47,367 nt of DNA from positions 1 to 47,367 of the forward strand of contig JANDLV010000031.1 in NCBI GenBank assembly GCA_024330185.1, read 5' to 3'. Shown piece after piece: positions 3-47,367 of this stretch. The notes under the pieces are model-generated. The model made no database searches. It was not told the DNA's origin and was given only the letters and a program-made list of their open reading frames with translations. Each line of letters opens with the position of its first letter. Positions within the stretch are counted from its first letter, which is position 1. The stretch comes from Candidatus Siliceabacter maunaloa. GTDB lineage: Bacteria > Actinomycetota > Thermoleophilia > Solirubrobacterales > Solirubrobacteraceae. A program made the translations under genes and the position numbers.

Positions 3-1034
3 CAAGGGCAATCTCAGCCGGCGCTACCGCGCCGGGGCGCGGAAAACGGGGCTAGCGCGCCCGCCCGGGCCGCGCTGCTGGGCAACCCATCGGATGGCTA
101 CGGCGGGGCGACGCTGGCGGTCGCCGTGCAGGACTTCGCGGCGCAGGTGACCGTCTACGAGTGGCCCGAGCTCGAGGTCCTCCCCGCCGACGGGGACCGC
201 TGCGCCCACCCCTCGCTCGCGGCGCTGGTCGGCGAGGTGCGCGCGCACGGCTACGAGGGCGGTCTGCGCCTGGTCAAGGCGGCCATCGTGCGCTTCGCGC
301 GCTGGTGCGAGGAGCACGCCCTCGCCCTGGAGCACACGACCTTCTCGGTGCGCTACGCCTCCACGGTCCCCCGCGGGGTCGGGCTCGGCGGCTCGAGCGC
401 GATCGTGATCGCCACCCTGCGCGCGCTGTGCGCCTTCCACGCTGTCGCGATCCCGCCGGCCGTGCTTCCCGGCCTCGCGCTGGCCGCCGAGACGCAGGAG
501 CTCGGGCTCGCGGCCGGCCTGCAGGACCGCGTGGTGCAGAGCTACGAGGGCCTGGTGGCCATGGACTTCGCCCCCGACCTGATGGCCCGCGACGGGCACG
601 GGCGCTACGAGGCCCTCGACCCAGCGCTGCTGGGGCCGCTGTTCCTGGCCCACCGGACCGAGGCGGCCCAGCCCTCCCAGGTGGTGCACGCCGACCTGCG
701 CGCGCGCCACGACGCGGGCGAGCCGGCCGTGGTGCAGGGCATGGCCGCGATCGGAGCGCTGGCCGGCGAGGGCCGGGCGGCCCTGGAGCGCGGCGACCGC
801 GGCGCCCTGGGGGAGCTCATGGCCGCCAACGTCGCGCGGCGCGGCGCGCTCTATGACCCCGATCCGCGCCATCTCGCACTGGTGGAGATCGCGCGGGCCT
901 GCGGGACCTATGCCAACTTCGCCGGCTCGGGCGGCGCAGTGGTGGGGCCGTGCCCGGACGAGACGACCTTCGCACGGCTGGAGGAGGCCTACGCGCGCGA
1001 GGGCTGCGCGGTGCTGCGGCCGACCGTGGGGTGA
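3..1034 (+). CDS. GHMP-family sugar kinase (glucuronokinase-like), 5' end outside window
   Basis: ATP-dependent small-molecule kinase of the GHMP superfamily. The N-terminal substrate motif LGNPSDGYGG is encoded around 78-104, and the phosphate-binding motif PRGVGLGGSSA around 370-402. The reading frame is open to the left edge. The first in-frame GTG (126) would cut off the conserved GNPSDGYGG motif, and no ATG, GTG or TTG occurs in frame before it, so the real start is probably upstream of the window. The C-terminus reads GCAVLRPTVG and stop. This same 3' end is repeated at 1902-1942, beyond a two-gene module on the other strand. The exact substrate is not determined; the motif resembles plant-type glucuronokinases and related bacterial sugar kinases. 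Confidence 0.85.
   Translation, partial: QGQSQPALPRRGAENGASAPARAALLGNPSDGYGGATLAVAVQDFAAQVTVYEWPELEVLPADGDRCAHPSLAALVGEVRAHGYEGGLRLVKAAIVRFARWCEEHALALEHTTFSVRYASTVPRGVGLGGSSAIVIATLRALCAFHAVAIPPAVLPGLALAAETQELGLAAGLQDRVVQSYEGLVAMDFAPDLMARDGHGRYEALDPALLGPLFLAHRTEAAQPSQVVHADLRARHDAGEPAVVQGMAAIGALAGEGRAALERGDRGALGELMAANVARRGALYDPDPRHLALVEIARACGTYANFAGSGGAVVGPCPDETTFARLEEAYAREGCAVLRPTVG
993..1034 (+). repeat. Direct repeat copy A, 3' end of the GHMP kinase gene
   Basis: These 42 bases, ending at the kinase stop codon, match 41 bases at 1902-1942 with one single-base gap and two substitutions. The two copies flank the two-gene module on the minus strand. Confidence 0.85.
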
Positions 1035-1046
1035 CGTGGCGAAGTC

Positions 1047-1604
1047 CTAGCGCTTTCCCGAGGAGCCCGACCATGTCCGCCATTGCTCGTGGCCCGCCTG
1101 CGTTGCGTCGAAGACGTCGCTCCAGTCCGCGCGAAGCGGCTGAACTCCGAGTTTCTCGACGAGGACGCGCAGTACGTCCTCCAGCGCGATGCGGCCGGTC
1201 GGCAGGTGCGCTCCGGAGAGCGCGTCGTTCGAACATCCAGCGGCAGGCCCTATGTGAACGTGCGGTCGCGTGACCGCGCCTGCACCAGTGGGGTTCCAGT
1301 GGAAGGCCAGCAGTTCCTGACCACCGAAGGTGACCACGTAGGAGTACGCGACGGTCTCCACCTTCCACGGTCCACGTGCGTGGTCGGCCTCCACCAGGCG
1401 GTATTGCTGTCCGACGAACAGGGAGGCCTCATGATCACCGCGCAGCGCCTCGAAATCGCCGTCGCCGAGGACCATCGCGTGAGGCTCGGCCGATGGCTGG
1501 TAGCCGCCGGCGACCTGGAGGACCGACCTGCTGACGCAGCTCACCGCGAGCTGCATCGGCTCCACAAAGGCGTGGACCGCCTCAGGCGGCGTGCGACCGG
1601 CCAA
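1047..1604 (-). CDS. Uncharacterised 185-aa protein, second gene of a toxin-antitoxin-like pair
   Basis: No function is recognised with confidence. The centre reads like a compact single-domain protein: an aromatic strand (VAYSYVVTFGGQELLAFHW near residues 85-102), then TRPHVHIG and later LPTGRIALEDVLRVLVEKLG. The HW...TRPHVHIG pattern is faintly like TumE/DUF6516-type proteins, but the family cannot be assigned by eye. It overlaps the upstream 68-aa gene by 23 bases if the first ATG is used; an ATG 16 codons further in would remove the overlap. The size ratio, tight coupling and flanking direct repeats suggest a mobile two-gene cassette. The toxin role is an inference. Confidence 0.7.
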   Translation of the reverse strand: MAGRTPPEAVHAFVEPMQLAVSCVSRSVLQVAGGYQPSAEPHAMVLGDGDFEALRGDHEASLFVGQQYRLVEADHARGPWKVETVAYSYVVTFGGQELLAFHWNPTGAGAVTRPHVHIGPAAGCSNDALSGAHLPTGRIALEDVLRVLVEKLGVQPLRADWSDVFDATQAGHEQWRTWSGSSGKR

Positions 1605-1788
1605 ACGGGATCAGGATCGAGAGCCGGCTGACATGTGCATCGGCGGACTCGCGAAACTCGCCTGCATCCCATCGCGCGATGAACTCCTTTGCGCTGAGGT
1701 GGAGGTACTTCCTCGTCTGGCGATCGAGCAGTGCAACGGCCTCATCGTCAGTGAGGTCGTTGAAGGTGTGGGGGCTGATCGTCGCCAT
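1582..1788 (-). CDS. Uncharacterised 68-aa protein, first gene of the toxin-antitoxin-like pair
   Basis: Small protein with the motif YLHLSAKEFIARWDAGEF near residues 28-45 and a hydrophobic end (RLSILIPFGR). This pattern, a short helix pair with 'EF-RRWDAGE', is common in small actinobacterial genes that sit directly before a larger uncharacterised gene. The start ATG is preceded by AAGGA at a spacing of about seven bases, which supports it over the longer upstream reading. It may be the antitoxin or partner of the downstream gene; no DNA-binding motif is obvious. Confidence 0.7.
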   Translation of the reverse strand: MATISPHTFNDLTDDEAVALLDRQTRKYLHLSAKEFIARWDAGEFRESADAHVSRLSILIPFGRSHAA

Positions 1789-1901
1789 GGCGTTCCTTGA
1801 GGTCAGTCGGAGCGAAGGACCGAGCCACAAGGAGGATGCGCCACGGGCCGGACGGAAGCTCTGGCCCAGTGTAAGACCGTCCGTCTTCGAGCGGACGCCG
1901 G

Positions 1902-1942
1902 GCGCGCGAGGTTGCGCGGTGCTGCGGCCGACCGTCGGGTGA
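1902..1942 (+). repeat. Direct repeat copy B, detached kinase 3' end
   Basis: Near-identical copy of 993-1034. In one frame it still encodes GCAVLRPTVG followed by a stop, exactly the end of the kinase, although no kinase precedes it. It runs straight into the promoter region of the VOC gene, so the ancestral order was probably kinase then VOC gene with nothing between. Confidence 0.85.
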
Positions 1943-1947
1943 TATCG

Positions 1948-1959
1948 TTGCATGTGCAA
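1948..1959 (+). promoter_or_regulatory. Probable operator upstream of VOC dioxygenase gene
   Basis: TTGCATGTGCAA has two 5-base arms around a 2-base centre and lies 27 bases before the ATG of the VOC gene. TTGCA-type palindromes are typical targets of MarR-family regulators, which control MhqO-type genes in other bacteria. No MarR gene is present in the window, so the regulator is unknown. Confidence 0.4.
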
Positions 1960-1985
1960 TCAGTCCTGGCCCACGGAGGCTCCGC

Positions 1986-2915
1986 ATGCGACTCGAAGGC
2001 ATCCACCACATCACCGCGATCACCGGGGACGCTCCTCGCAACCTCGACTTCTATACGCGAGTGCTGGCGCTGCGGCTGGCGGCCAAGACGGTCAACCAGG
2101 ACGACCAGAGCGTCTATCACCTGTTCTACGCCGACGAGCGCGGCCAGCCGGGGTCGGAGCTGACGTTCTTCGAGTACCCGGGCGCTGCTGCGGGCCGGCC
2201 GGGCGCGGGCATGGTGCATCGGATCGTGTGGCGGGTCGGCTCTCCCGAGGCCATCGACTTCTGGGCCGCGCGGATCGCGGACGACGGGCTCCCCACCGAG
2301 CGCAACCAGGGCCGGCTCCTCTTCGCCGACCCCGAGGGCCTCCGGCACGAGCTCGTCGTCACCGCCCGCGACGACGAGCCGCTCCAGGCCGAGCACCCCG
2401 ACATCCCGCAGGCTTTCGCGCTCCAGGGCTTCGAGGGCGTGCGCGCCTACAGCGCCGAGCCCGACCACAGCGCCCCGGTCCTCGGGCAGATCCTCGGAGC
2501 GACACGCCAGGACGACGCCACGTATGAGGTGCGCGGCGAGCAGCGCGGCAGCTTCATCGCCTACGACCCTCCGCCGGCCGACGGCGAGCGCCCCCGCCAG
2601 GGCGCCGGCTCGGTGCACCACGTCGCGTGGGGCACCACCCAGGCCGAGCACCCGAAATGGCACGAACACCTCACGCAGGCCGGCGTGCCCAACAGCGGGA
2701 TCATCGACCGCCACTACTTCCACTCGATCTACTTCCACGAGCCCAGCGGCGTGCTGTTCGAGATCGCCGACGACGGGCCGGGGTTCACGGTCGACGTGCC
2801 GCTGGAGGAGCTGGGAACGAAGGTGATCCTCCCGCCGCAGCTCGAGCGCCACCGCGCCGAGATCGAGGCGAAGCTGACGCCGCTGCCCGACCCGCGCGCC
2901 GCGCGCGTGGAGTGA
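1986..2915 (+). CDS. Ring-cleaving dioxygenase-like VOC protein (MhqO/MhqA type)
   Basis: Two tandem vicinal-oxygen-chelate (glyoxalase/extradiol dioxygenase) modules. The first begins at once with GIHHITAITGD, giving the first metal His. The second begins around residue 208 with SVHHVAWGTT, and a metal Glu is expected in GVLFEIADDGPGF near residue 265. The 309-aa length fits the MhqO family, which handles quinones and hydroquinones through thiol-dependent detoxification. The ATG has GGAGG six bases upstream. It stands alone, with a putative operator in its leader; a detoxification role is known for the family and inferred here. Confidence 0.85.
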   Translation: MRLEGIHHITAITGDAPRNLDFYTRVLALRLAAKTVNQDDQSVYHLFYADERGQPGSELTFFEYPGAAAGRPGAGMVHRIVWRVGSPEAIDFWAARIADDGLPTERNQGRLLFADPEGLRHELVVTARDDEPLQAEHPDIPQAFALQGFEGVRAYSAEPDHSAPVLGQILGATRQDDATYEVRGEQRGSFIAYDPPPADGERPRQGAGSVHHVAWGTTQAEHPKWHEHLTQAGVPNSGIIDRHYFHSIYFHEPSGVLFEIADDGPGFTVDVPLEELGTKVILPPQLERHRAEIEAKLTPLPDPRAARVE

Positions 2916-2924
2916 GCCAGCGGG

Positions 2925-3353
2925 TCAGCCGGGGCTCGACGTCCAGGGATCGACGAGGCTGATGCTCGTCGCCTTGAAGTCGCGGGTGTTGCGGGTCGCG
3001 AGCTCGGCGCCGCGCAGACGGCAGATCGCCGCTATCTGGCCGTTGGCGATGTCGATCGGACGCCCCGCCTGCTTGCGACTGGCTGCCAGCTCTGCGTAGC
3101 GCTCAGCCGCCGCGGCGTCGAAGGGCAGGATCCGTCCGTCAAAGCCCTCACGTAGGAGCACGTCGGCCCGGTGAGCGAGCTGGGACCGCCGTGCTCCCTG
3201 CGGCAGCCGGACGATCCCGAACAGCAGTTCAGCCACGCTCACGGAGGTGAGGGCGAGGTCGTCGGACTCCTGCGCATCAGCCCAACGTTGCACCGCGGGC
3301 GCCGGTTCGGGCCGGATGAGCTCCGACACGACCATGGTGTCGAGGATGATCAC
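2925..3353 (-). CDS. vapC: VapC-family PIN-domain toxin
   Basis: PIN-domain ribonuclease of 142 aa. The acidic metal-binding set is visible: D5 in MIILDT, E42 in SVAELLFG, D101 in PIDIANGQIAA and D125 in ATRNTRDF. It overlaps its antitoxin gene by four bases (ATGA), so the two are translationally coupled. The presence of a full acidic set argues for an active RNase. It is transcribed against the VOC gene, whose stop lies ten bases away. Confidence 0.92.
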   Translation of the reverse strand: MIILDTMVVSELIRPEPAPAVQRWADAQESDDLALTSVSVAELLFGIVRLPQGARRSQLAHRADVLLREGFDGRILPFDAAAAERYAELAASRKQAGRPIDIANGQIAAICRLRGAELATRNTRDFKATSISLVDPWTSSPG

Positions 3354-3598
3354 TCGCTGAAGTCGGCTGCGCGCGCGGGCTCGTCGCGTGACGGCAGCTC
3401 GAGCTCCACGCCGCCCACATCCGCGAAGAGCTCATGAATCCACGTGCCGAGCCCTAGCTCAGGCGGACGCTTGCGAACGGCAGTTGCGAGGATCGCTCGA
3501 ACCTCCGCTTCCATCGAGCGTCCGTTCTCCGCGGCACGGACGCGCAGCTTGGCCTTCACGTCGTCGTCGAGGTTGCGGACGGTGATCGTCGAGGTCAT
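3350..3598 (-). CDS. vapB: VapB/FitA-type ribbon-helix-helix antitoxin
   Basis: 82-aa protein with an N-terminal ribbon-helix-helix (TSTITVRNLDDDVKAKLRVR, then the NGRSMEAEVRAIL helix), typical of Arc/FitA 'plasmid stability' antitoxins that bind their own promoter. The acidic C-terminus (residues 56-82) is the likely toxin-binding tail. No clear ribosome-binding site precedes the ATG. Its neighbour vapC overlaps by four bases. Confidence 0.88.
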   Translation of the reverse strand: MTSTITVRNLDDDVKAKLRVRAAENGRSMEAEVRAILATAVRKRPPELGLGTWIHELFADVGGVELELPSRDEPARAADFSE

Positions 3599-3682
3599 CG
3601 CTGTCAATGCTAGCGCGACGCGCCGGCCTCGCGGAGGCGATAGAACGCTCCCTCCACCCCCCGGGAGAGGAGCCGAGAACCC

Positions 3683-4789
3683 ATGAAGATCCGCGCCGCC
3701 GTCCTGGAGGAGTTCGGCCAGCCGCTGAACGTGCAGGAGGTCGACCTGGCCGAGCCCGCCGATGGCGAGGTGCTCGTGCGCCTGGAGGCCTGCGGCGTCT
3801 GCCACACCGACCTCTACACCGCCTCGGGCGCCGACCCCTCCGGCTACGCGCCCACGGTGCTCGGCCACGAAGGGGCGGGCGTCGTGGAAGCCACAGGCCC
3901 CAACGTCACCGACGTCCAGCCCGGCGACCACGTCGTGACCCTCTTCTCGCCCCAGTGCCGCGAGTGCATCCACTGCATCGACCCGCGCACCAACCTCTGC
4001 CTGGCCATCCGCGACCAGCAGAACAAGGGCTACCTCCCCGACGGCACCGCGCGCCTGAGCCGCGACGGCGAGCCGATCCGCCACTTCATGGGAACGTCGA
4101 CCTTCGCGCAGTACACGGTCATGCCGCAGATCGCGCTGGCCAGGATCGATCCCGAGGCCCCGCTGGACCGCGCGTGCCTGTTCGCCTGCGGCCTGTCCAC
4201 CGGCCTGGGCGCCGCGATGTTCACCGCCAAGGTCGGACCCGGCTCGACATGCGCCGTCTTCGGCGCGGGGATGGTCGGCCTGGGCGCGGTGGCCGGCGCG
4301 CGGCTGCAGGGCGCCGAGCGCATCATCTGCGTGGACCTCTCCCAAGAGCGCCTCGACCTCGCGACCGGCCAGGGCGCCACGGAGACCCTGATCGGCGGCG
4401 AGGACACCGTGGACAAGCTCCTCGAGATGACCGACGGCTTCGGCGCCGACTACACCTTCGAGGCGACGGGCAACGTCAACGTCATGCGACAGGCGGTCGA
4501 GGCGGCCCGGATGGGTTGGGGGCTGGCGACGATGTGCGGCGTTGCCGGCAAGGGTGAGACGCTCGACGTCGTCCCGCGCCTGCTCATCACCGGCCGGCGC
4601 GTGGCGGGCTCGTCCTTCGGGGGCGTGACGGGGCGCGACCAGGTGCCCCAGCTCGTGAACCGCTACATGGCCGGCGACATCGACGTCGACGCCTTCCTGT
4701 CACACCGCATCACCCTCGACGAGGTCAACAAGGGCTTCGACCTGATGCACCACCAGGACGGCATCCGCAGCGTCATCGACTTCACCTGA
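3683..4789 (+). CDS. Class III alcohol dehydrogenase (thiol-dependent formaldehyde dehydrogenase type)
   Basis: Zinc-dependent medium-chain dehydrogenase of 368 aa. Catalytic zinc ligands are C40, H62 and C169; structural zinc ligands are C92, C95, C98 and C106. The NAD-binding loop is GAGMVG at 194-199, with D218 for the ribose. MGTSTFAQYTV and the C-terminal LMHHQDGIRSVIDF are characteristic of class III (S-hydroxymethyl-thiol dehydrogenases). Actinobacteria commonly use mycothiol instead of glutathione, so an S-(hydroxymethyl)mycothiol role is possible, but the sequence itself looks more like the glutathione type. It lies 16 bases before an MBL hydrolase, a pairing also known around mycobacterial mscR. 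Confidence 0.88.
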   Translation: MKIRAAVLEEFGQPLNVQEVDLAEPADGEVLVRLEACGVCHTDLYTASGADPSGYAPTVLGHEGAGVVEATGPNVTDVQPGDHVVTLFSPQCRECIHCIDPRTNLCLAIRDQQNKGYLPDGTARLSRDGEPIRHFMGTSTFAQYTVMPQIALARIDPEAPLDRACLFACGLSTGLGAAMFTAKVGPGSTCAVFGAGMVGLGAVAGARLQGAERIICVDLSQERLDLATGQGATETLIGGEDTVDKLLEMTDGFGADYTFEATGNVNVMRQAVEAARMGWGLATMCGVAGKGETLDVVPRLLITGRRVAGSSFGGVTGRDQVPQLVNRYMAGDIDVDAFLSHRITLDEVNKGFDLMHHQDGIRSVIDFT

Positions 4790-4805
4790 ACCCCGAGGAG
4801 GCCCC

Positions 4806-5546
4806 ATGATCATCGAGCGCACCGAGAACCCGACCTTCCTCTCCAACGCCTACCTGGTCGCCGACGGCCCCGGCGGCCACGGCGTGCTGGTCGACGGCAA
4901 CGGCGAGGCCAGGGAGCTGCTCGAGCGTGTCGAGCGCGACGGGATCACCATCACCCACGTGCTGTGCACCCACCACCACGGCGACCACGTGATCGACCTC
5001 CCGCAGATCGCCGACCGCTTCGGGGTGCCGCTGCTGGCCCATCCGCTGGCGGTGGAGATCCTCGGCGAGCCCTACCTGCCGGGACTGGACGACGGCGCGA
5101 CCGTCGAGTCGGGCGAGCTGACCGTCACCGCGATCCACACCCCCGGCCACTGCGCCGACCACGTCGCGCTGAAGATCGACGACACCGACTGCCTGACCGC
5201 CGACGTCCTCTTCAAGGGTACGGTCGGCGGCACGCGCGCGCCGCGGGCGACCGGCTTCGCCGACCTGCGCCGCTCGGTCGAGCGCCTGCTGGAGCTCGAC
5301 CCTGCCACCCGCATCCACCCGGGCCACAAGGAGCCCTCGACGATCCACGACGAGTCGGTCGACAACCCCTTCGTGCGCATCTGGAAGGGCCGCGACGAGG
5401 AGGGCGCCGAGCCCTGCAAGGTCGCCGGCCGCGACGCCACCCTGATCCTCTGGGCGCCCGACTACGACGGGGGCAACAAGGCCTGGGTGCGCTTCCCCGA
5501 CGGCGAGGATGCCATCGTCGGAGGGTCACAGGTCACGCGGGGCTGA
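4806..5546 (+). CDS. MBL-fold metallo-hydrolase (glyoxalase II-like)
   Basis: 246-aa metallo-beta-lactamase-fold hydrolase. The metal motif is HHHGDH at residues 56-61, with a further His in TPGHCADH, the Asp in LTADVLFKG and a late His in IHPGHKEPS. AGGAGG lies five bases before the ATG. It is co-directional with the dehydrogenase gene, so it likely hydrolyses the thioester that dehydrogenase produces or a related thiol adduct; that role is an inference from pairing. Its last codons overlap the convergent vapC by 14 bases. Confidence 0.85.
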   Translation: MIIERTENPTFLSNAYLVADGPGGHGVLVDGNGEARELLERVERDGITITHVLCTHHHGDHVIDLPQIADRFGVPLLAHPLAVEILGEPYLPGLDDGATVESGELTVTAIHTPGHCADHVALKIDDTDCLTADVLFKGTVGGTRAPRATGFADLRRSVERLLELDPATRIHPGHKEPSTIHDESVDNPFVRIWKGRDEEGAEPCKVAGRDATLILWAPDYDGGNKAWVRFPDGEDAIVGGSQVTRG

Positions 5547-5937
5547 GCAGGCGCAGGCCGGTGATGCCCTCGTAATCACGCGGGTTGAGCGTCGCAAGCG
5601 GCAGGCCGTGCGTCAGGCAGCAGGCCGCAATCCAGGCGTCGTTCGCCGGACGGGGCCGACCGGTAGCGAGGGCGTGGCCGGTGATCTCGCCCCACCGCTC
5701 CGCTACGGCCCGATCGCCGGGAATAGGTTCGAAGTCCGAGAGCCAGTCGACCATATCGGCGACCCGGCGCCGCCCCCAGCGTGCGTGCGCGGCTCCGCGG
5801 AACAGCTCACCGACCGTGACGTACGTTATCCGTAGCCGGAGGCCGTTCAACGCTTGGAGGACGTCGCCGGGCAACGACCGCCGCATGAGCCGTGAGGCGA
5901 CGTCCGTGTCGACCACGACCTCCAGCTCATCGGCCAC
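5533..5937 (-). CDS. vapC: VapC-family PIN-domain toxin
   Basis: 134-aa PIN-domain protein with acidic residues D10 (VVVDTDVAS), E44 (TVGELFRG), D100 (ANDAWIAA) and D121 (TLNPRDYEGI). It overlaps the upstream HTH gene by 11 bases. The length and motif spacing match active VapC toxins. It belongs to a different VapC branch from the toxin at 2925. Confidence 0.9.
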   Translation of the reverse strand: MADELEVVVDTDVASRLMRRSLPGDVLQALNGLRLRITYVTVGELFRGAAHARWGRRRVADMVDWLSDFEPIPGDRAVAERWGEITGHALATGRPRPANDAWIAACCLTHGLPLATLNPRDYEGITGLRLLSPA

Positions 5938-6235
5938 GGGCGCGTTCGGCGTAGGTCATCGCCAGGAAGGCGTCGACCTCTTCGTCGGACTCGAAGATCC
6001 CCGAGTTCTCGAAGTCCTCGATCGTGAGCCAGGACTTCGGTATGGCCTGGTCGGGGCCGCGCGGAGTCAGTGCCTCGACGTCATCCCGGACCAAGCGCCG
6101 CACGCCGGACGGAAGCCGCGCGACCCTGACCTTGCCCCGGTCGGCATACCGGCGCATCGTGTTGTCGTGGACCCCGAGCAGGCGGGCCGCCTCGCGGATC
6201 GAGATGTAGGTTGGGTCGGTGGCCATGGTGGACAT
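5927..6235 (-). CDS. Helix-turn-helix antitoxin (excisionase/MerR-like DNA-binding domain)
   Basis: 102-aa protein. Residues 10-60 form an excisionase-type helix-turn-helix (ISIREAARLLGVHDNTMRRY then an RRLVRDDVEAL end). The tail, with EDFENSGIFESDEEVDAFLA, probably binds the PIN toxin. Another ATG three codons downstream is equally possible as start; neither has a good ribosome site. The gene is divergent from the exopolyphosphatase gene, with 72 bases between the starts. Confidence 0.85.
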   Translation of the reverse strand: MSTMATDPTYISIREAARLLGVHDNTMRRYADRGKVRVARLPSGVRRLVRDDVEALTPRGPDQAIPKSWLTIEDFENSGIFESDEEVDAFLAMTYAERARGR

Positions 6236-6307
6236 GGTAGCCGGCGACACACCCGCCCGACAGAGCGGCCACTGCATCGCGGCAACGCTACGCATACGCT
6301 TGGGACA

Positions 6308-7243
6308 GTGCGCGTGGCCGTCGTCGACATCGGGACCAACTCGACGCGGCTGCTGGTCAGCGACGTGGCGCAGGACGGGACGGTCACCGACCTGGAGCGC
6401 ATCAGCGAGGTGACGCGACTGGGCCAGGGCGTCGACGTCACGGGAAGCCTTGCCGACGAGGCGATGGAGCGGGTCTTCGCGGTGCTGGACCGCTACCGCG
6501 CGACGATCGATGCGCACGGGGCCACGGCGAGCCGAGCCGTGCTGACCAGCGCGGTGCGCGACGCGGCCAACGGGGCGCATTTCACCGACGTGGTCTGCGA
6601 CCGCTACGGGCTGGATGCGCGCACGATCGCCGGCGAGGAGGAGGCGCGGCTGACCTTCCTGGGGGCGACGAGCGAGCGGCCGCCGGGCGACGGCACCGCG
6701 CTGGTGGTCGTCGACATCGGCGGCGGCTCGACCGAGCTGGTCGTCGGCGCCGACGGGGCGGTGGAGGCCTTCGTCTCGCTGCAGGCCGGCGTCGTTCGCC
6801 AGAGCGAGCGCCACCTGCGCGGCGATCCGCCCGAGTCCGACGAGCTGCAGGCGCTGACCGCGGAGGTGCGGGAGGTGCTGGCCGGCGCGGTGCCCGAGGA
6901 GCACCGCGAGCGGGTGCAGGCCGCCATCGCGGTGGCGGGCACGGCGACCTCATGCGCGGCCATCGAGCTCGAGCTCGACCCCTACGACCCCGAGCGGGTC
7001 CACGGCCACCAGCTCCAGGAGGGCACGTGCGAGCTGCTGCTGGCCCGGCTGGCGACGATGACCGAGGACGAGCGCCGCGGTGTGGTCGGTCTCCAGCCCG
7101 ATCGCGCGCCGACCATCGTCGCCGGCGTCGTGATGCTGCTGGAGTGCATGCGCGCGTTCGGCCTCGACCAGGTCGAGGTCAGCGAGCACGACCTCCTGCG
7201 CGGCGCGGCGCTGGACCTGAGGGGTGCCGAAGGCGAAAGGTGA
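6308..7243 (+). CDS. Exopolyphosphatase, Ppx/GppA family
   Basis: 312-aa sugar-kinase/actin-fold phosphatase. The phosphate-1 loop is VAVVDIGTNSTRLLV at the N-terminus; the phosphate-2 loop is VVVDIGGGSTELVV near residues 135-148; the adenosine-type region is IAVAGTATS near 207. The family releases phosphate from polyphosphate or pppGpp. The start is GTG, because homologues begin just before VAVVDIGTNS. The last residues (GAEGER) and the stop codon lie inside a dispersed palindromic repeat, so this C-terminus was probably remodelled by repeat insertion. Confidence 0.9.
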   Translation: MRVAVVDIGTNSTRLLVSDVAQDGTVTDLERISEVTRLGQGVDVTGSLADEAMERVFAVLDRYRATIDAHGATASRAVLTSAVRDAANGAHFTDVVCDRYGLDARTIAGEEEARLTFLGATSERPPGDGTALVVVDIGGGSTELVVGADGAVEAFVSLQAGVVRQSERHLRGDPPESDELQALTAEVREVLAGAVPEEHRERVQAAIAVAGTATSCAAIELELDPYDPERVHGHQLQEGTCELLLARLATMTEDERRGVVGLQPDRAPTIVAGVVMLLECMRAFGLDQVEVSEHDLLRGAALDLRGAEGER

Positions 7244-7264
7244 CGCCGCCTGAGGCGGGCCCCC
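7221..7264 (+). repeat. Dispersed palindromic repeat, copy 1
   Basis: Shares GGTGCCGAAGGCG and then GCCGCCTGAGGCGGGCCCC, separated by a short variable part, with copies at 17757, 25419 and 32315. The second half folds as CCGCCT/AGGCGG and the first as GCC-GAA-GGC. This copy contains the ppx stop codon. Confidence 0.75.
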
Positions 7265-7320
7265 AGGTGGTCTCCCTGGACGGATGTCCCATTGAGCGGG
7301 CTCGATGAGGGTTCGATACT

Positions 7321-7475
7321 CATCGTGCATAGGTCGGGCGCACGCCGATTCCCAGCGGCGACTCCCGCGCCCGGCCACTACATAAGGTCCTGAAGAGGGC
7401 AAGTACCCCCTGCCCGTCCCGTCGGGGCCGACTGACCAAGCGAGGAAGCCGCCTCTCCCAGGGCGGCTTCCTTGT
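7321..7475 (+). ncRNA. Candidate structured RNA between convergent genes
   Basis: After a small hairpin near 7303-7324 the segment forms a 10-bp stem (GGTCGGGCGC with GCGCCCGGCC, one G-U pair) enclosing a CGCCG/CGGCG inner stem. A GGGCA/TGCCC hairpin follows, then a strong terminator. No open frame with coding character crosses it. It does not carry the conserved GGAA loop of SRP RNA and is too short for RNase P or tmRNA. It could be only the untranslated tail of ppx. Confidence 0.3.
7443..7472 (+). terminator. Strong, probably bidirectional intrinsic terminator
   Basis: An 11-bp perfect stem (AGGAAGCCGCC with GGCGGCTTCCT) closes an 8-base loop, followed on the plus strand by TTGTGTTC. It lies between convergent genes, 25 bases after the stop of the minus-strand thiamine-diphosphate enzyme. 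Confidence 0.8.
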
Positions 7476-7496
7476 GTTCGGGCCCCGGTCGCGGGC

Positions 7497-9143
7497 TCAC
7501 GCCAGGTTCGACCGCCGCGGATAGGCGACCGACGGGTCCGTGAGCACGTTGACCAGCGCGGGCCGCCCGGCGCTGAACGCCCGGTCCAGCGCACCGCGCA
7601 GCTCCCCGGGCTGGCGCACCAGCTCCCCGTGGCCGCCCAGCGCCTCAACGACGGTGTCGTAGCGCGTCCCGGGGGTCAGCTCGGCAGCCACGGAGTAGCC
7701 GTAGAGGGACTCCATCGGGTGCTTCTCCAGCCCCCAGATGCCGTTGTTGCCCATCACGCCCACGACGTCGACCCCGTGGCGGGCCAGCGTGTCGTACTCC
7801 ATCCCGCTGAAGCCGAAGGCGCCGTCGCCCAGGAGCAGCACGACCTGGCGGCCGGGATGGGCGAGCTTGGCGGCCAGCGCGTAGCCGGGGCCCGCGCCCA
7901 GGCAGCCGAACGGCCCGGGATCGAGCCAGCAGCCGGGCTGGTAGGAGTCGATGACCCGCCCGGCGTAGGAGACGAAGTCGCCGCCGTCGCCGATGAGGAT
8001 GGCGTCGCGGTCCAGCACCTCGGCCAGGCCGGCGTACAGGCGCATCGGGTGCAGGGGCGCGCGGTCGTCGGCGAGCTCCTCGCGCTCCGCGGCACGCCTG
8101 GCGTCCTCCTCCTCGCGCAGGTCGCCGATCCAGGCGCTGTGGCCGGGCCCGCCGCTCGCGCCCTCGCGCAGCGCCTCGAGCGTCGGGCCGATGGCGCCGT
8201 AGAGCTCGGCGGCGACCTCGCGCGGGTGGGCGCGCTGCGGCTCGCAGCGGTCCAGCACGACGATCTCGGTCTCCTCGCCGAACGAGCCGCCGAAGCCCAG
8301 GCGGAAGTCCATGGGCACCCCGACGACCAGGGCCAGGTCGGCGCCCTTCAGCCCCTTGGAGCGCGCGCGGGAGAAGAAAAGCTCGTGGTCGGCGGGGACG
8401 CATCCGCGGGCCAGCCCGTTGAGGAACACCGGGACGCGTAGCTCCTGCGCCAGCGCAAGCAGCGCCGCCTCGCCGTGGCCCCAGTAGAGGTTGGTGCCGG
8501 CCATGATCACCGGACGCTCGGCCTCGCTGAGCAGGGCCAGCGCGCGCTCGACCTGCGCGGGATCGGGCGCGGTGCCCGCGCCGCGCTCGGGCGGGTCGAG
8601 CTCGTCGTCGATCAGGGTGCCCTCGGCGAAGACGTGGTCCAGCGGCAGGTCGACGAAGGCCGGGCCGCTGGGCGGCGCCTGGGCTGCGGCCATCGCGTCG
8701 TCGATCAGGCCCGTCAGCTCGTCGACCGACTGGGCGGTGGTGGCGAAGCGGGTGAGCGGGCGCACGAACGGGATGTGGTCGATCTCCTGCAGCGAGCCCA
8801 TGCCCCAGCGCATGGCGGGCGCGCGGCCGCCCAGGACGAGCATGGGCGACTGGTTGGCCTGGGCAGAGGCGATGGCGCTCATGGCGTTGGTCACCCCGGG
8901 CCCGGCCGTCAGCGCGGCGACTCCAGGTTGGCGGGTGACCTTGGCCCAGCCCTCGGCGGCGAAGGCCGCGGCCTGCTCGTGGCGGACGTCGACGATGTCG
9001 ATGCCCTCCTCGCGGCAGCCGTCGTAGAGCGAGAAGAGGTGGCCGCCCGAGAGCGTGAAGAGCTTGGTGACGCCGTGGGCGCGCAGGCGGCGGGCGATGA
9101 GCCGCCCGCCGTGGGCGGCGCCCGGCTCGGTCTGGATGGACAT
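7497..9143 (-). CDS. Thiamine-diphosphate-dependent enzyme, acetolactate synthase large-subunit-like
   Basis: 548-aa three-domain enzyme. The N-terminal pyrimidine-binding domain has the catalytic Glu56 in [16 protein letters not shown]. The middle FAD/DHS-like domain runs about 190-340. The C-terminal diphosphate domain has the motif starting GDGAFGFSG and ending GNN at residues 439-467. No small regulatory subunit or ilvC follows, so it is more likely one of the stand-alone IlvG/IlvB-like paralogues than the biosynthetic enzyme. Its substrate cannot be read from sequence. Confidence 0.85.
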
Positions 9144-37815: not shown

Positions 37816-38880
37816 TCAGTCGCCGAGCAGATCGACCGCCGCGCCCAGGTACTCGTCGGCGCGCGCGGTGAGACGGCGCAGGCCGTAGGCGTCCAGGACG
37901 GCGCGCTTGAGCTCGTTGGGGCGCGTGGCGGTGTGGGCGGCGCGCAGGCGGCGCATGAGCTCGGCGATCTCGGTGAGGGGGACCTCGGTCAGCTCGCGCG
38001 GGCCCAGCTCGCGCACGCGGACGGATGAGGTGTCGGGCGCGCGCACGACCTCCTCACCCTGGCCGGCGACCTCGTCGGCGGCGGTAAGCTCGACGCGGCG
38101 GTCGCGGGCCAGCCAGTGGAGGGCGCTGGTCAGCGGGGTGCGGGCCACCGAGGTGAGCTTGCGCCCGCCGCCGGCGCGGTTGACCACGGCGTAGGCACGG
38201 GTGGCCAGCATCGGGCCCTCGACGGCGACGACGGCCTCGATGGCGTCCATGAGGCGCGGGCGGGGCGTCTCGCGCGGGTCGCCGGGGCCGGCGCCCTCCC
38301 AGGCGCGGTAGGGCTCCAGCGCGACGCGGCCGGGGGCGCCGCCGCCCGCCGGCGTGCCGCCCTCTCCGCCCGTCGTCCAGTCGGCGACGTCCCAGTCGGG
38401 CGCGGGCTCGCCGGGGCCGAGCACGAGCACCGCCGCGCCGGTGAGCTCGTGGGTGAGCGCGCGGTCGTCGGTCTGCGCGCGCGACGGCGGGTCGGGCCAG
38501 CCGGTGAGCACGACGGCCGCGACCCGGACGCCCCCGCCGCGGGCGGCCTCGACGGCCAGGCGCGCCGCGTCGACGCTGCGCGGCCCGACCGACACCGCGA
38601 CGACCAGCGCGGCGCCGAGCTCGGCGGCGAGGTCACGCACCGCGTAGCGCGGGGTCAGCGGCGCGAGCAGCCCCCCGTGGGCCAGCAGCACCCGCAGCGG
38701 CGCGTCGGCGCGGGCCTCTTCCAGCAGGGCGTCCCTGCTCACGCGCTCGCCCGCGTGGCGTGCGGCGGTCAGCGGGCTCGCACTGGCCGGCGGGACAAGC
38801 TCGACGACCGTGCCGCCGGGGATGGCCGCGGCGACCTGGGCCTCGCCCGCGTCCGCCGTCGCACCGACGACGAGCAGCAT
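37816..38880 (-). CDS. BioD-like domain protein with DUF3320-like C-terminus
   Basis: 354 aa. Residues 1-150 have an alternating alpha/beta order like dethiobiotin synthetase-type P-loop proteins (LVVAVSVGPRSVDAARLAVE, VRVAAVVLTGW), but there is no Walker A motif at the N-terminus. After a Gly/Pro-rich linker (155-205), residues 208-354 resemble DUF3320 winged-helix units known from large helicase-like proteins (MDAIEAVVAVEGPM; TRPNELKRAVLDAYGLRRLT). The bases before its ATG reproduce the 3' end of prs, so it was probably once the next gene after prs with a TGATG overlap. Confidence 0.65.
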   Translation of the reverse strand: MLLVVGATADAGEAQVAAAIPGGTVVELVPPASASPLTAARHAGERVSRDALLEEARADAPLRVLLAHGGLLAPLTPRYAVRDLAAELGAALVVAVSVGPRSVDAARLAVEAARGGGVRVAAVVLTGWPDPPSRAQTDDRALTHELTGAAVLVLGPGEPAPDWDVADWTTGGEGGTPAGGGAPGRVALEPYRAWEGAGPGDPRETPRPRLMDAIEAVVAVEGPMLATRAYAVVNRAGGGRKLTSVARTPLTSALHWLARDRRVELTAADEVAGQGEEVVRAPDTSSVRVRELGPRELTEVPLTEIAELMRRLRAAHTATRPNELKRAVLDAYGLRRLTARADEYLGAAVDLLGD

Positions 38881-38893
38881 CAGAAGAGCTGGT
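38876..38893. repeat. Direct repeat at the BioD-like gene start (prs 3' end copy)
   Basis: AGCATCAGAAGAGCTGGT, an 18-base perfect match to 40071-40088, the 3' end of prs. Confidence 0.9.
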
Positions 38894-38978
38894 GGCCTGA
38901 AGGGTGCGTCACGACGGGCAGATTACCCGGGCTGGACGCCTACCTCGCGATCAACGAGGCAGCACGAGCGAAGGGATG

Positions 38979-39010
38979 AGGCGGCCGGGTAAACCTGCAC
39001 CCGGCCGCCT
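38979..39010 (-). terminator. Hairpin terminator
   Basis: Perfect 12-bp stem AGGCGGCCGGGT / ACCCGGCCGCCT around an 8-base loop, 52 bases beyond the stop of the small membrane protein gene. No long T-run. Confidence 0.65.
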
Positions 39011-39061
39011 CTCGAAAGTGGCGTCTGCCGCCACCAACGGTCCCTGACGACTAGTGACTGC

Positions 39062-39355
39062 CTAGTGATCGTGGTCGGCCGTCGACGGATCGCGGCTGCC
39101 GGCCTTCGCGAGCCCCCGACTGACGAGGTAGCCCGCCGTCACGATCGACACGTACAGCCAAGCCTGCCGGGCGATGAACTCGTCGTTCTCTCCGTCGGAC
39201 TCTCCGATGACAGCGGCGCTGATCAGAATTGCCACGACCACGACCACGGCGACGAACGCGTACAGCTCGCTCGTCTTGGTCGAGTGCTTGGTCTCCGACT
39301 GCTGCGTGCCGGTCCGGGCGACGTTCCGGCCGGTTTCTCGGGGTGATTCGGCCAT
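39062..39355 (-). CDS. Two-span small membrane protein
   Basis: 97 aa with a polar start, a first membrane helix (YAFVAVVVVVAILISAAVIG) and a second (AWLYVSIVTAGYLVSRGLAK), ending in GSRDPSTADHDH. This layout matches a common actinobacterial family of unknown function. AGGAGG lies five bases before the chosen ATG. It is the only intact gene in the segment inserted after prs. Confidence 0.75.
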   Translation of the reverse strand: MAESPRETGRNVARTGTQQSETKHSTKTSELYAFVAVVVVVAILISAAVIGESDGENDEFIARQAWLYVSIVTAGYLVSRGLAKAGSRDPSTADHDH

Positions 39356-39557
39356 GTGGCCTCCTAGCACTTGTAGGGGACGCGGGATCGAGAGTGATCC
39401 CGCACGCTGATAGCCGAGACCCCGACCGGAGCCCGCGCGAGAGCCCTAGCGTTGCCACGTTTTCCTTGGACTTCGCCGGCCACCCATCCAGGCGACAGGC
39501 GAAACCCGAGGAGGTGCGTGCCCCGAGCGACGGGGCGCAAACGTGCTCCTGCGACCG

Positions 39558-39984
39558 TCAGTCGTCCGCCGGGTCCAGCACGAAGATCTCGATCGCTCTG
39601 TCGGGGTCGAAGAGGATCTGGCTGTGGTAGGTCCGGACCTTGCGGCCCAGAATCTCCTCGATCGCCCCGACGGTGGTGTCCGTCATCGCCTCCTCGAGCG
39701 CAGCCGGTAATAGCGGACAAGGTCCTGGTGGCCTGCGGCGAGCAGCGTCTCCTCGCTGCGGGTCAGCCCCCTTCCATGACGGCGAAGATGTACTCGTCGT
39801 TGATGAAGGTCTTCGCCTTGGTCGGCCCCTTGCCATAGAAATCCTTCTTCATCCCCACCATCGCGTGGGAGATGCGGCCGCGCAGCGAGTCGTGGCGGTC
39901 CTCGGCACTTCCCACTGCGTCGGCGCCCGAGGCCTGGAGCTCAGACGCGGTCTCGAGCCGCGGCAGATGCTGCTCGTCCGCCAC
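39558..39984 (-). pseudogene. DUF2294 gene broken by two frameshifts
   Basis: Three frames in succession make up one DUF2294 protein. The first gives MKKDFYGKGPTKAKTFINDE and YIFAVMEGG. A shift at a run of five G (around 39772) leads to LTRSEETLLAAGHQDLVRYY. Another shift near 39700 leads to ALEEAMTDTTVGAIEEILGR and AIEIFVLDPADD. Each piece follows the expected family order. A sequencing error in one place is possible; two in 430 bases is less likely. Start is GTG. Confidence 0.75.
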
Positions 39985-40070
39985 GCGCGCATGTTACCGC
40001 GCAGGCTTGTTGAGGACCGTCACCAGATGGTTACCGGCGTGCACCATTTTGAGCCCGCAATCGCGGCAAG

Positions 40071-40088
40071 AGCATCAGAAGAGCTGGT
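40071..40088. repeat. Direct repeat at the prs 3' end
   Basis: AGCATCAGAAGAGCTGGT; covers the last codons (NQLF) and stop codon of prs. Partner of 38876-38893. Confidence 0.9.
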
Positions 40089-41070
40089 TCTCCCCCTGGA
40101 AGATCGCGCTCACCGAGCTGTCGGTGAAGATGCTGCGGATCGTGTCGGTGAGCATGTCCGAGCAGGAGAGCACGCGGATCATGTCCGGTGCGCTGGGGCG
40201 CAGCGGGATGGTGTCGGTGACCACGATGCGCTCGAAGCCCGAGGCGGCGAGGGTCTCGTAGGCGCAGCCGGAGAGGACGGGGTGGGTGGCGGCGGCGAGC
40301 ACGCGGCGGGCGCCGGCGTCGAGGACCGTGCGCCCCGCTGCGGTCAGCGTGCCCGCGGTGTCGATCATGTCGTCGACGATGACCGCGGTGCGGTCGCGCA
40401 CGTCGCCGATGACGTAGCCGATCTCGGCGACCTGCTGGGCGGGACGCTCCTTGTCCAGGATGGCCAGCTCGGCGCCGACCTTGGAGGCGAAGTTCTTGTT
40501 GAGCTTGACGCGGCCGGCGTCGGGCGCGACCACGACGAGGTCGGGGAGATCGAGGTCGGCGAAGTAGCGGGTGAGCATGTCGATCGCGGTCATGTGGTCG
40601 ACCGGCTTGGCGAAGAAGCCCTGGATCTGGCCGGCGTGGAGGTCCATGACGACCACACGGTCGGCGCCAGCGGCCTCCAGCATGCGCGCGACCACGCGGG
40701 CGGAGATCGGCTCACGCGGAGCGGACTTCTTGTCCTGGCGGCTGTAGCCGAACCAGGGGCAGACGGCGATGACGCGGTGGGCGGACGCGCCCACGGCGGC
40801 GTCGATGAGCAGCAGGAGCTCCATCAGCGCGTCGTTGGGCGAGATGCCCTCGTCCTCGTTGCCGCACAGCGGCTGGACGATGAAGACGTCGGCGCCGCGG
40901 ATGTTCTCCTCGTAGCGACAGTAGACCTCGCCGTTGGAGAACGTCTTGACGGTCACCGGGCCGAGCTCGACGCCGAGCTTGTCGGCGATGAGATGGGCCA
41001 GCGGGCGGTTGGCCCGGCCCGAGAAGAGCATGAGCCGCTTGTCGTATTCGATGCCCAGGCTGATGGACAT
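40075..41070 (-). CDS. prs: Ribose-phosphate pyrophosphokinase
   Basis: 331 aa from the chosen ATG. Makes PRPP. KRLMLFSGRANRPLAHLIAD at the N-terminus, FVRFANGE-like TFSNGEVYCRYEENIRGADV, YSRQDKKSAPREPISARV flexible loop, DLHAGQIQGFF metal site and VIVDDMIDTAGTL PRPP-binding loop. Upstream in-frame ATG codons would add 8-28 residues without homology. The last codons are duplicated near 38880. Confidence 0.96.
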   Translation of the reverse strand: MSISLGIEYDKRLMLFSGRANRPLAHLIADKLGVELGPVTVKTFSNGEVYCRYEENIRGADVFIVQPLCGNEDEGISPNDALMELLLLIDAAVGASAHRVIAVCPWFGYSRQDKKSAPREPISARVVARMLEAAGADRVVVMDLHAGQIQGFFAKPVDHMTAIDMLTRYFADLDLPDLVVVAPDAGRVKLNKNFASKVGAELAILDKERPAQQVAEIGYVIGDVRDRTAVIVDDMIDTAGTLTAAGRTVLDAGARRVLAAATHPVLSGCAYETLAASGFERIVVTDTIPLRPSAPDMIRVLSCSDMLTDTIRSIFTDSSVSAIFQGENQLF

Positions 41071-41150
41071 GGGACGTCGTGCGGGCGCGTCCATCGCGCC
41101 CGGCAGCATACGTGCGTCAGCCGATGACGCGGTCGGCGCAGGGCGCGCCG

Positions 41151-47305: not shown

Positions 47306-47367
47306 GAAGGTTCGAACTTGAGAGGACCGTAGGCGAAACCTTCATCGGTCCGAACTTGAGAGGACCG
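47306..47367. repeat. Repeat unit at the window's right edge
   Basis: CGAACTTGAGAGGACCG occurs at 47313-47329 and 47351-47367, spaced 38 bases. GAAGGTT (47306) and AACCTTC (47337) flank the first copy as an inverted repeat. The window ends exactly with the second copy, so more units may follow. Confidence 0.7.

What the first reader, a model, noticed from the sequence alone, without database searches (positions are those of the whole stretch)
38876..40088. 1.2-kb insertion at the prs 3' end with an 18-bp direct repeat
AGCATCAGAAGAGCTGGT covers the prs stop codon and recurs exactly at the ATG of the BioD-like gene. Joining the outer parts recreates prs followed by that gene with a TGATG overlap. 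So prs and the BioD-like gene were probably adjacent, and the segment between was inserted with an 18-bp repeat, like an integrase attachment core. It rebuilt the prs end. The cargo is a small membrane gene and a decayed DUF2294 gene. The kinase locus at the left end shows the same logic, which hints at a shared mechanism for targeting gene ends.
Basis: partly seen in the sequence, partly recalled or inferred. Interest (0 to 1): 0.75.

Follow-up and report, generated by a model that had tools for sequence, protein, structure and literature searches.

The report
Mobile-element relic behind the prs gene
A 1.2-kb piece of foreign DNA sits at the end of the essential gene prs, flanked by two copies of that gene's last letters, and relatives show it is the remnant of a virus-like mobile element whose enzyme repeatedly uses this gene end as its docking site in this bacterial order.

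Summary
AGCATCAGAAGAGCTGGT occurs at 38876-38893 and 40071-40088 and nowhere else in the genome. Joining the flanks gives prs overlapping the BioD-like gene as TGATG. G027, in a related genus, has the two genes almost touching.

Comparison with 232 genomes of the order (a Solirubrobacteraceae lineage) shows that the prs 3' end is a recurrent attachment site for tyrosine integrases. In G069 an 8.0-kb element sits there between 17-bp copies of the prs end. It encodes an integrase, primase and phage capsid protein. Smaller inserts without integrase, carrying other cargo (Fic, TIGR04255, DUF5122, DUF2294), lie at prs in other genera, and several have matching empty sites.

Two such inserts keep an integrase C-terminus next to prs: G050, and G001 from the window's own genus. 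The window insert has no integrase trace. It does have low GC, a weak arm-like site about 41 nt past the prs stop (38-39 nt elsewhere), and a right-end block shared with G001, G067 and G018.

It is therefore an attL/attR-flanked relic of the CIME kind at an attachment gene I found no report of. The GHMP-kinase islet at the left end has the same layout. No movement was tested.

The parts
40075..41091 (-). prs (ribose-phosphate pyrophosphokinase); its 3' end is the attachment gene, rebuilt intact (...GENQLF*)
   Evidence: Pfam PF13793/PF14572/PF00156; present in 61 of 61 relatives
40071..40088 (-). prs-side core copy (attL-like), covers the prs stop codon
   Evidence: exact 18-bp repeat
40017..40036 (-). 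degenerate arm-type pair CGGTAACCATCTGGTGACGG, 41 nt past the prs stop; TGCTAACG-type pairs sit at 38-39 nt in G069, G050, G224, G085
   Evidence: PWM scan: score 8.5, about the 99th percentile of random 170-nt windows, best pair in the insert
39763..39984 (-). decayed DUF2294/MpsC gene, N-terminal fragment
   Evidence: PF10057 positions 5-43, E 8e-4, below cut-off
39558..39836 (-). decayed DUF2294/MpsC gene, C-terminal fragment in another frame
   Evidence: PF10057 positions 68-110, E 6e-5; 70% nt match to the insert at prs in G035
39062..39355 (-). small ORF of 97 aa with a hydrophobic stretch, sporadic cargo
   Evidence: in 31 of 146 family genomes at many loci; nearest relative (G071, 74% aa) is also directly downstream of prs
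38978..39011 (.). inverted repeat GAGGCGGCCGGGT/ACCCGGCCGCCTC, terminator-like, between cargo and right end
   Evidence: I7
38899..38927 (-). right-end block GGTAATCTGCCCGTCGTGACGCACCCTTC, shared with G001, G067 and G018 directly before their second core; reads as a -10-like box plus GTG
   Evidence: order-wide search finds it only in G000, G001, G067
38880..38912 (-). possible leaderless 10-codon ORF (MTHPSGHQLF*) whose stop overlaps the BioD-like start (TGATG)
   Evidence: sequence; inference
38876..38893 (-). BioD-side core copy (attR-like), covers the BioD-like start codon
   Evidence: exact 18-bp repeat
37816..38880 (-). BioD-like (AAA_26) gene, ancestral neighbour of prs
   Evidence: PF13500; adjacent to prs in G027

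Best explanation
The 1.2-kb segment is a decayed integrative element without integrase, flanked by attL and attR, at a tyrosine-integrase attachment site formed by the last codons and stop of prs. Proposed steps: an element carrying a copy of the prs end at its attP entered the attB formed by the prs 3' end (shown for integrase-bearing G069; inferred for the window). Crossover inside the identical core left prs with an intact end supplied by the element, and a second core copy in front of the next gene (sequence shown). The element then lost its integrase, leaving small cargo of which DUF2294 is already broken (integrase relics shown in G001 and G050; inferred for the window). The right end may give the cut-off BioD-like gene its own promoter and a mini-ORF whose stop overlaps the BioD-like start (inference).
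For: Exact unique repeat, with clean adjacency of prs and the BioD-like gene after removal. Prs and BioD-like genes adjacent in G027. G069: 8.0-kb element at the prs end with 17-bp perfect core repeats, encoding an integrase (PF00589 + Arm-DNA-bind_4 + SAM_3), CHC2/RepB primase and phage capsid. Integrase C-terminal relics beside prs in G050 (90% over 21 aa to the G069 integrase) and in G001, same genus. Second cores with different cargo in G001, G004, G018, G050, G068, G132. Empty sites: G070 vs G068, G065 vs G004, G127/G034 vs G132. Arm-like pairs with 11-bp period 38-39 nt past the prs stop in four genomes, weak equivalent at 41 nt in the window. Low GC. Rarity of such repeats at other gene ends.
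Against: No integrase or integrase relic was recognised in the window insert. Its arm-like site is weak. The shared right-end block differs from the G069 right end, so the window element may belong to another integrase lineage. G003 has an insert at the same junction without a repeat. Five genomes show only short tandem copies (33-86 bp) of the prs end, so part of the signal there is local duplication. All comparisons rest mostly on draft genomes.
Confidence: 0.87

Rival explanations
1. Non-autonomous cassette rather than dead relic: a small cargo unit keeping functional att sites, moved in trans by integrases of satellites that use the same site.
For: Several inserts are only 0.5-3 kb, have one or two cargo genes, and (G132) keep arm pairs at both ends; related cargo recurs at prs in other genera: the 97-aa ORF in G071, DUF2294 in G035; second element-like left ends follow the right core in G069 and G050.
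Against: In the window the arms are weak and DUF2294 is broken; no G069-like integrase was found in this genome; movement cannot be tested here.
Confidence: 0.2
2. Illegitimate insertion: a fragment captured at a staggered break, with an 18-bp target duplication, no recombinase.
For: Only two short repeats; no integrase in the window insert.
Against: The same gene end is hit in many genera, an integrase element sits at the same core in G069, integrase relics occur in G001 and G050, and a conserved block precedes the second core.
Confidence: 0.06
3. Duplication by selection or slippage: the second copy is a coupling signal copied from prs for the next gene, and the DNA between came by other means.
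For: 33-86 bp tandem copies of the prs end in G029, G031, G064, G118, G166; the second copy restores the TGATG overlap.
Against: In G067 the copy lies before a convergent gene, where coupling is meaningless; long inserts carry unrelated foreign cargo; G069 is an integrase element.
Confidence: 0.05
4. Assembly artefact joining unrelated contigs at an 18-mer.
For: Draft genome.
Against: The same layout occurs independently in same-genus G001 and many other assemblies; 18 bp is shorter than usual assembly k-mers (own knowledge).
Confidence: 0.02

Closest known systems
Cis-mobilizable elements (CIMEs), defined as elements that lost integration and transfer genes but kept attL and attR (PMC5704250)
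   Same: attL/attR-flanked, no integrase, small cargo; second element-like left ends after the right core in relatives (G069, G050)
   Different: 1.2 kb only; the parental element in this order looks like a phage satellite rather than an ICE; cis-mobilisation not shown
Phage satellites / PICI-type islands (the G069 element: integrase, HTH, primase, major head protein)
   Same: same attachment gene and core type; arm pair at nearly the same distance past the prs stop
   Different: the window segment has none of their genes left
Integrative elements at 3' ends of protein-coding genes, e.g. the Streptomyces PAISt island at the bacA 3' end (PMC4057263 abstract)
   Same: site-specific insertion at the 3' end of a protein-coding gene
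   Different: target here is prs with a core of about 13-18 bp that rebuilds the gene end; no paper in the searched library was found to name prs as the target

Membership tests
CIME-type relic element | flanked by attL and attR core repeats | tested here: met
   18-bp exact repeats at both ends; same core bounds the G069 element
CIME-type relic element | no integrase or transfer genes inside | tested here: met
   ORFs, Pfam and tblastn of the insert
CIME-type relic element | derived by decay from an integrative element | tested here: inconclusive
   shown for G001 and G050 by integrase relics; no relic in the window
CIME-type relic element | can be mobilised by a second element integrating at one att site | not testable with these tools
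   needs experiment; second element-like left ends after the right core in G069 and G050 fit
Autonomous tyrosine-integrase element | encodes the integrase | tested here: not met
   none in the insert; no G069-like integrase at E<=1e-30 in the own genome
Autonomous tyrosine-integrase element | target gene 3' end restored, empty site in relatives | tested here: met
   prs intact; G027 adjacent
Transposon / insertion sequence | terminal inverted repeats and transposase | tested here: not met
   no terminal inverted repeats at the two ends; no transposase family hit among the ORFs and frames scanned

The most novel reading that the evidence does not exclude
The prs 3' end acts as a long-lived docking site where one- or two-gene cassettes without integrase are exchanged in trans by satellites using the same core, and the cassettes' right end carries a portable leaderless promoter and mini-ORF that keeps the next gene expressed.
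Probability: 0.17. Interest if true: 0.65.

Novelty: new member of a known kind. Interest (0 to 1): 0.42.

Why it matters
It identifies prs, a gene present in every relative searched, as a recurrent integration site in a little-studied actinobacterial order. It gives the core sequence and a spacing rule for arm-like sites, and so a way to find satellites and their relics there. It also offers examples at different stages of decay, including one in the same genus, of how an integrase element shrinks to an att-flanked islet.

Tried and rejected
Promoter/mini-ORF as the only reason for the repeat: rejected as sole cause because G067 has it before a convergent gene and the block occurs only beside core copies. 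IMG/VR scan for the right-end core: two hits, both AT-rich virus genes without integrase nearby, chance. G069 integrase in viral contigs: nothing. G180 as proof of an occupied/empty polymorphism: rejected because the two prs tails differ at 3 of 128 bases, so they are different strains or contamination. Integrase relic in the window insert ('LDAYLAINEAARAKG' next to the right core): no Pfam support. Kinase-end relatives: only distant homologues, no conclusion.

Full report
Observation. The 18-bp repeat AGCATCAGAAGAGCTGGT is at 38876-38893 and 40071-40088, exact, absent from shuffles even with 3 mismatches, and unique to these two places in the 3.79-Mb genome. On the minus strand it reads ACCAGCTCTTCTGATGCT. 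The upstream copy covers the stop of prs (GENQLF*), the downstream copy the ATG of the BioD-like gene. Removing one copy and the 1,177 bp between joins prs to that gene with a TGATG overlap. Families: prs (PF13793, PF14572), BioD-like AAA_26, DUF2294/MpsC in two frames.

Relatives at the junction. In the genomes searched, the BioD-like gene was seen next to prs only in the window's genus and one related genus. In G027 the two are practically adjacent (prs TAG, then the BioD-like start within about 10-15 bp). In same-genus G001 about 640 bp of different DNA separate them, and a second copy of the prs end (GAACCAGCTGTTCTGAC, 17 bp) stands before the BioD-like gene. G001's copies carry the G001 prs allele (CTG...TGAC) and the window's carry the window allele (CTC...TGAT). 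The DNA just inside the second copy is alike in both (48 bp, 81%), the rest of the inserts is not. G003 has a 1.4-kb insert at the same place without a second copy.

A recurrent site. In 146 genomes of the family most genomes have one match to the prs end, prs itself. A second same-strand copy downstream was seen within 2.2 kb in G001, G004, G018, G029, G031, G064, G068, G118 and G132, besides the window; G166 has one 56 bp on. In other families of the order G050 has one about 3.1 kb on, and G221 and G224 have one on another contig. Some are only 33-86 bp apart and look like tandem duplications (G029, G031, G064, G118, G166); these I set apart. The long ones carry foreign cargo: Fic in G018 (PF02661), TIGR04255 in G132, DUF5122 in G050, and a DUF2294 match in G035, which has a weaker second core. 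Empty counterparts exist: G070 for G068 (same genus, YihY-like gene directly after prs), G065 for G004, G127/G034 for G132. Among 348 gene-like ORF ends only prs ends and the window's kinase end behave this way at <=2 mismatches.

The enzyme. In G069 the prs end (GAGAATCAGCTGTTCTAG) recurs 8.0 kb on as AAGAATCAGCTGTTCTAG. The element between has a tyrosine integrase with an arm-binding domain, an HTH protein, a CHC2/RepB primase and a phage major head protein, i.e. a satellite-like island. Its left end has direct repeats TGCTCACG/TGCTAACG with 11-bp period 38 nt past the prs stop; the same pair type sits at 38-39 nt in G050, G224 and G085 and at 61 nt in G132. The window's best pair in the whole insert, CGGTAACC/GGTGACGG, sits at 41 nt with a score near the 99th percentile of random windows: supportive, not conclusive. 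In G050 and G069 the right core is followed by another element-like left end, which suggests tandem accretion. Reading attL and attR of G132 (AAT...TAG against AAC...TGA) places the crossover between the Asn codon and the stop, inside CAGCTGTTCT (sequences; inference).

Relics. tblastn with four integrases against the DNA downstream of prs finds the C-terminus TYAHLLPQSDELAAERVAAAL in the G050 insert, 90% identical to the G069 integrase and in a similar position and the same orientation, and a decayed C-terminus (...ALSTYMGHATVAFTLDH*SHLVP) in the G001 insert. The latter matches the C-termini of integrases of the family, most with open frames of 340-450 aa, at 45-71%. So in the window's own genus the insert at this site is the wreck of an integrase element. 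The window insert itself has no recognisable integrase.

Cargo. The 97-aa small ORF is sporadic (31 of 146 genomes, many loci), and its nearest relative also lies directly downstream of prs, in G071. This makes it more likely cargo than an ancestral neighbour. GC of the insert is 66.1% against 72.9% for the window.

Right end. The block GGTAATCTGCCCGNNGTG...CCCTTC occurs in the order only before core copies, in the window, G001 and G067, plus a looser form in G018. It reads as a -10-like box and a leaderless GTG with a 10-codon ORF ending like prs. In the window its stop overlaps the BioD-like start. A terminator-like inverted repeat lies before it. I infer, without test, that this end re-supplies expression to the gene cut off from prs. 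In G067 the same block precedes a convergent gene, so this cannot be the origin of the repeat.

Filing. It works like, and meets the testable defining features of, a CIME: att-flanked, integrase lost (definition read in PMC5704250). It is not an autonomous element, and no transposon feature was found. I found no paper naming prs as attachment gene in the searched library; that library lacks most subscription journals.

Undecided: whether G001 and the window share one old insertion or had two; whether any islet still moves; whether the kinase-end islet uses a related integrase.

Noticed in passing
window 1002-1034 and 1910-1942: The 3' end of a GHMP-kinase-like gene (33 nt ending in TGA) recurs at 94% after 875 bp of low-GC DNA (66.4%) that holds two small unnamed ORFs (1047-1604 and 1582-1959, minus strand): a second gene-end islet with the same layout.
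   Followed up: partly
L119 (G029) 1654-1835; L123 rc (G031) 4006-4056; L125 rc (G118) 2730-2790; L162 rc (G166) 4475-4550: Short tandem copies (33-56 bp units, 55 bp x3 in G029) of the prs 3' end directly downstream of prs, without cargo; origin unexplained.
   Followed up: partly
L180 (G069) 171-8209: 8.0-kb satellite-like element with its own primase and major head protein at the prs 3' end.
   Followed up: yes
L164 (G180 C17): Downstream of prs lies an ORF whose start reads like a Vsr-type endonuclease (by eye), while another contig of the same assembly (L163) has the prs end followed by a different gene; the two prs tails differ at 3 of 128 bases.
   Followed up: partly
window 37816-38880: The C-terminal part of the BioD-like protein matches the end of NCBIfam NF058533 (anti-phage ProA) and DUF3320, both below their curated cut-offs.
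   Followed up: no
window 47309-47367: A 21-bp near-perfect repeat with 38-bp spacing (GGTYCGAACTTGAGAGGACCG) lies at the very right edge of the contig.
   Followed up: no
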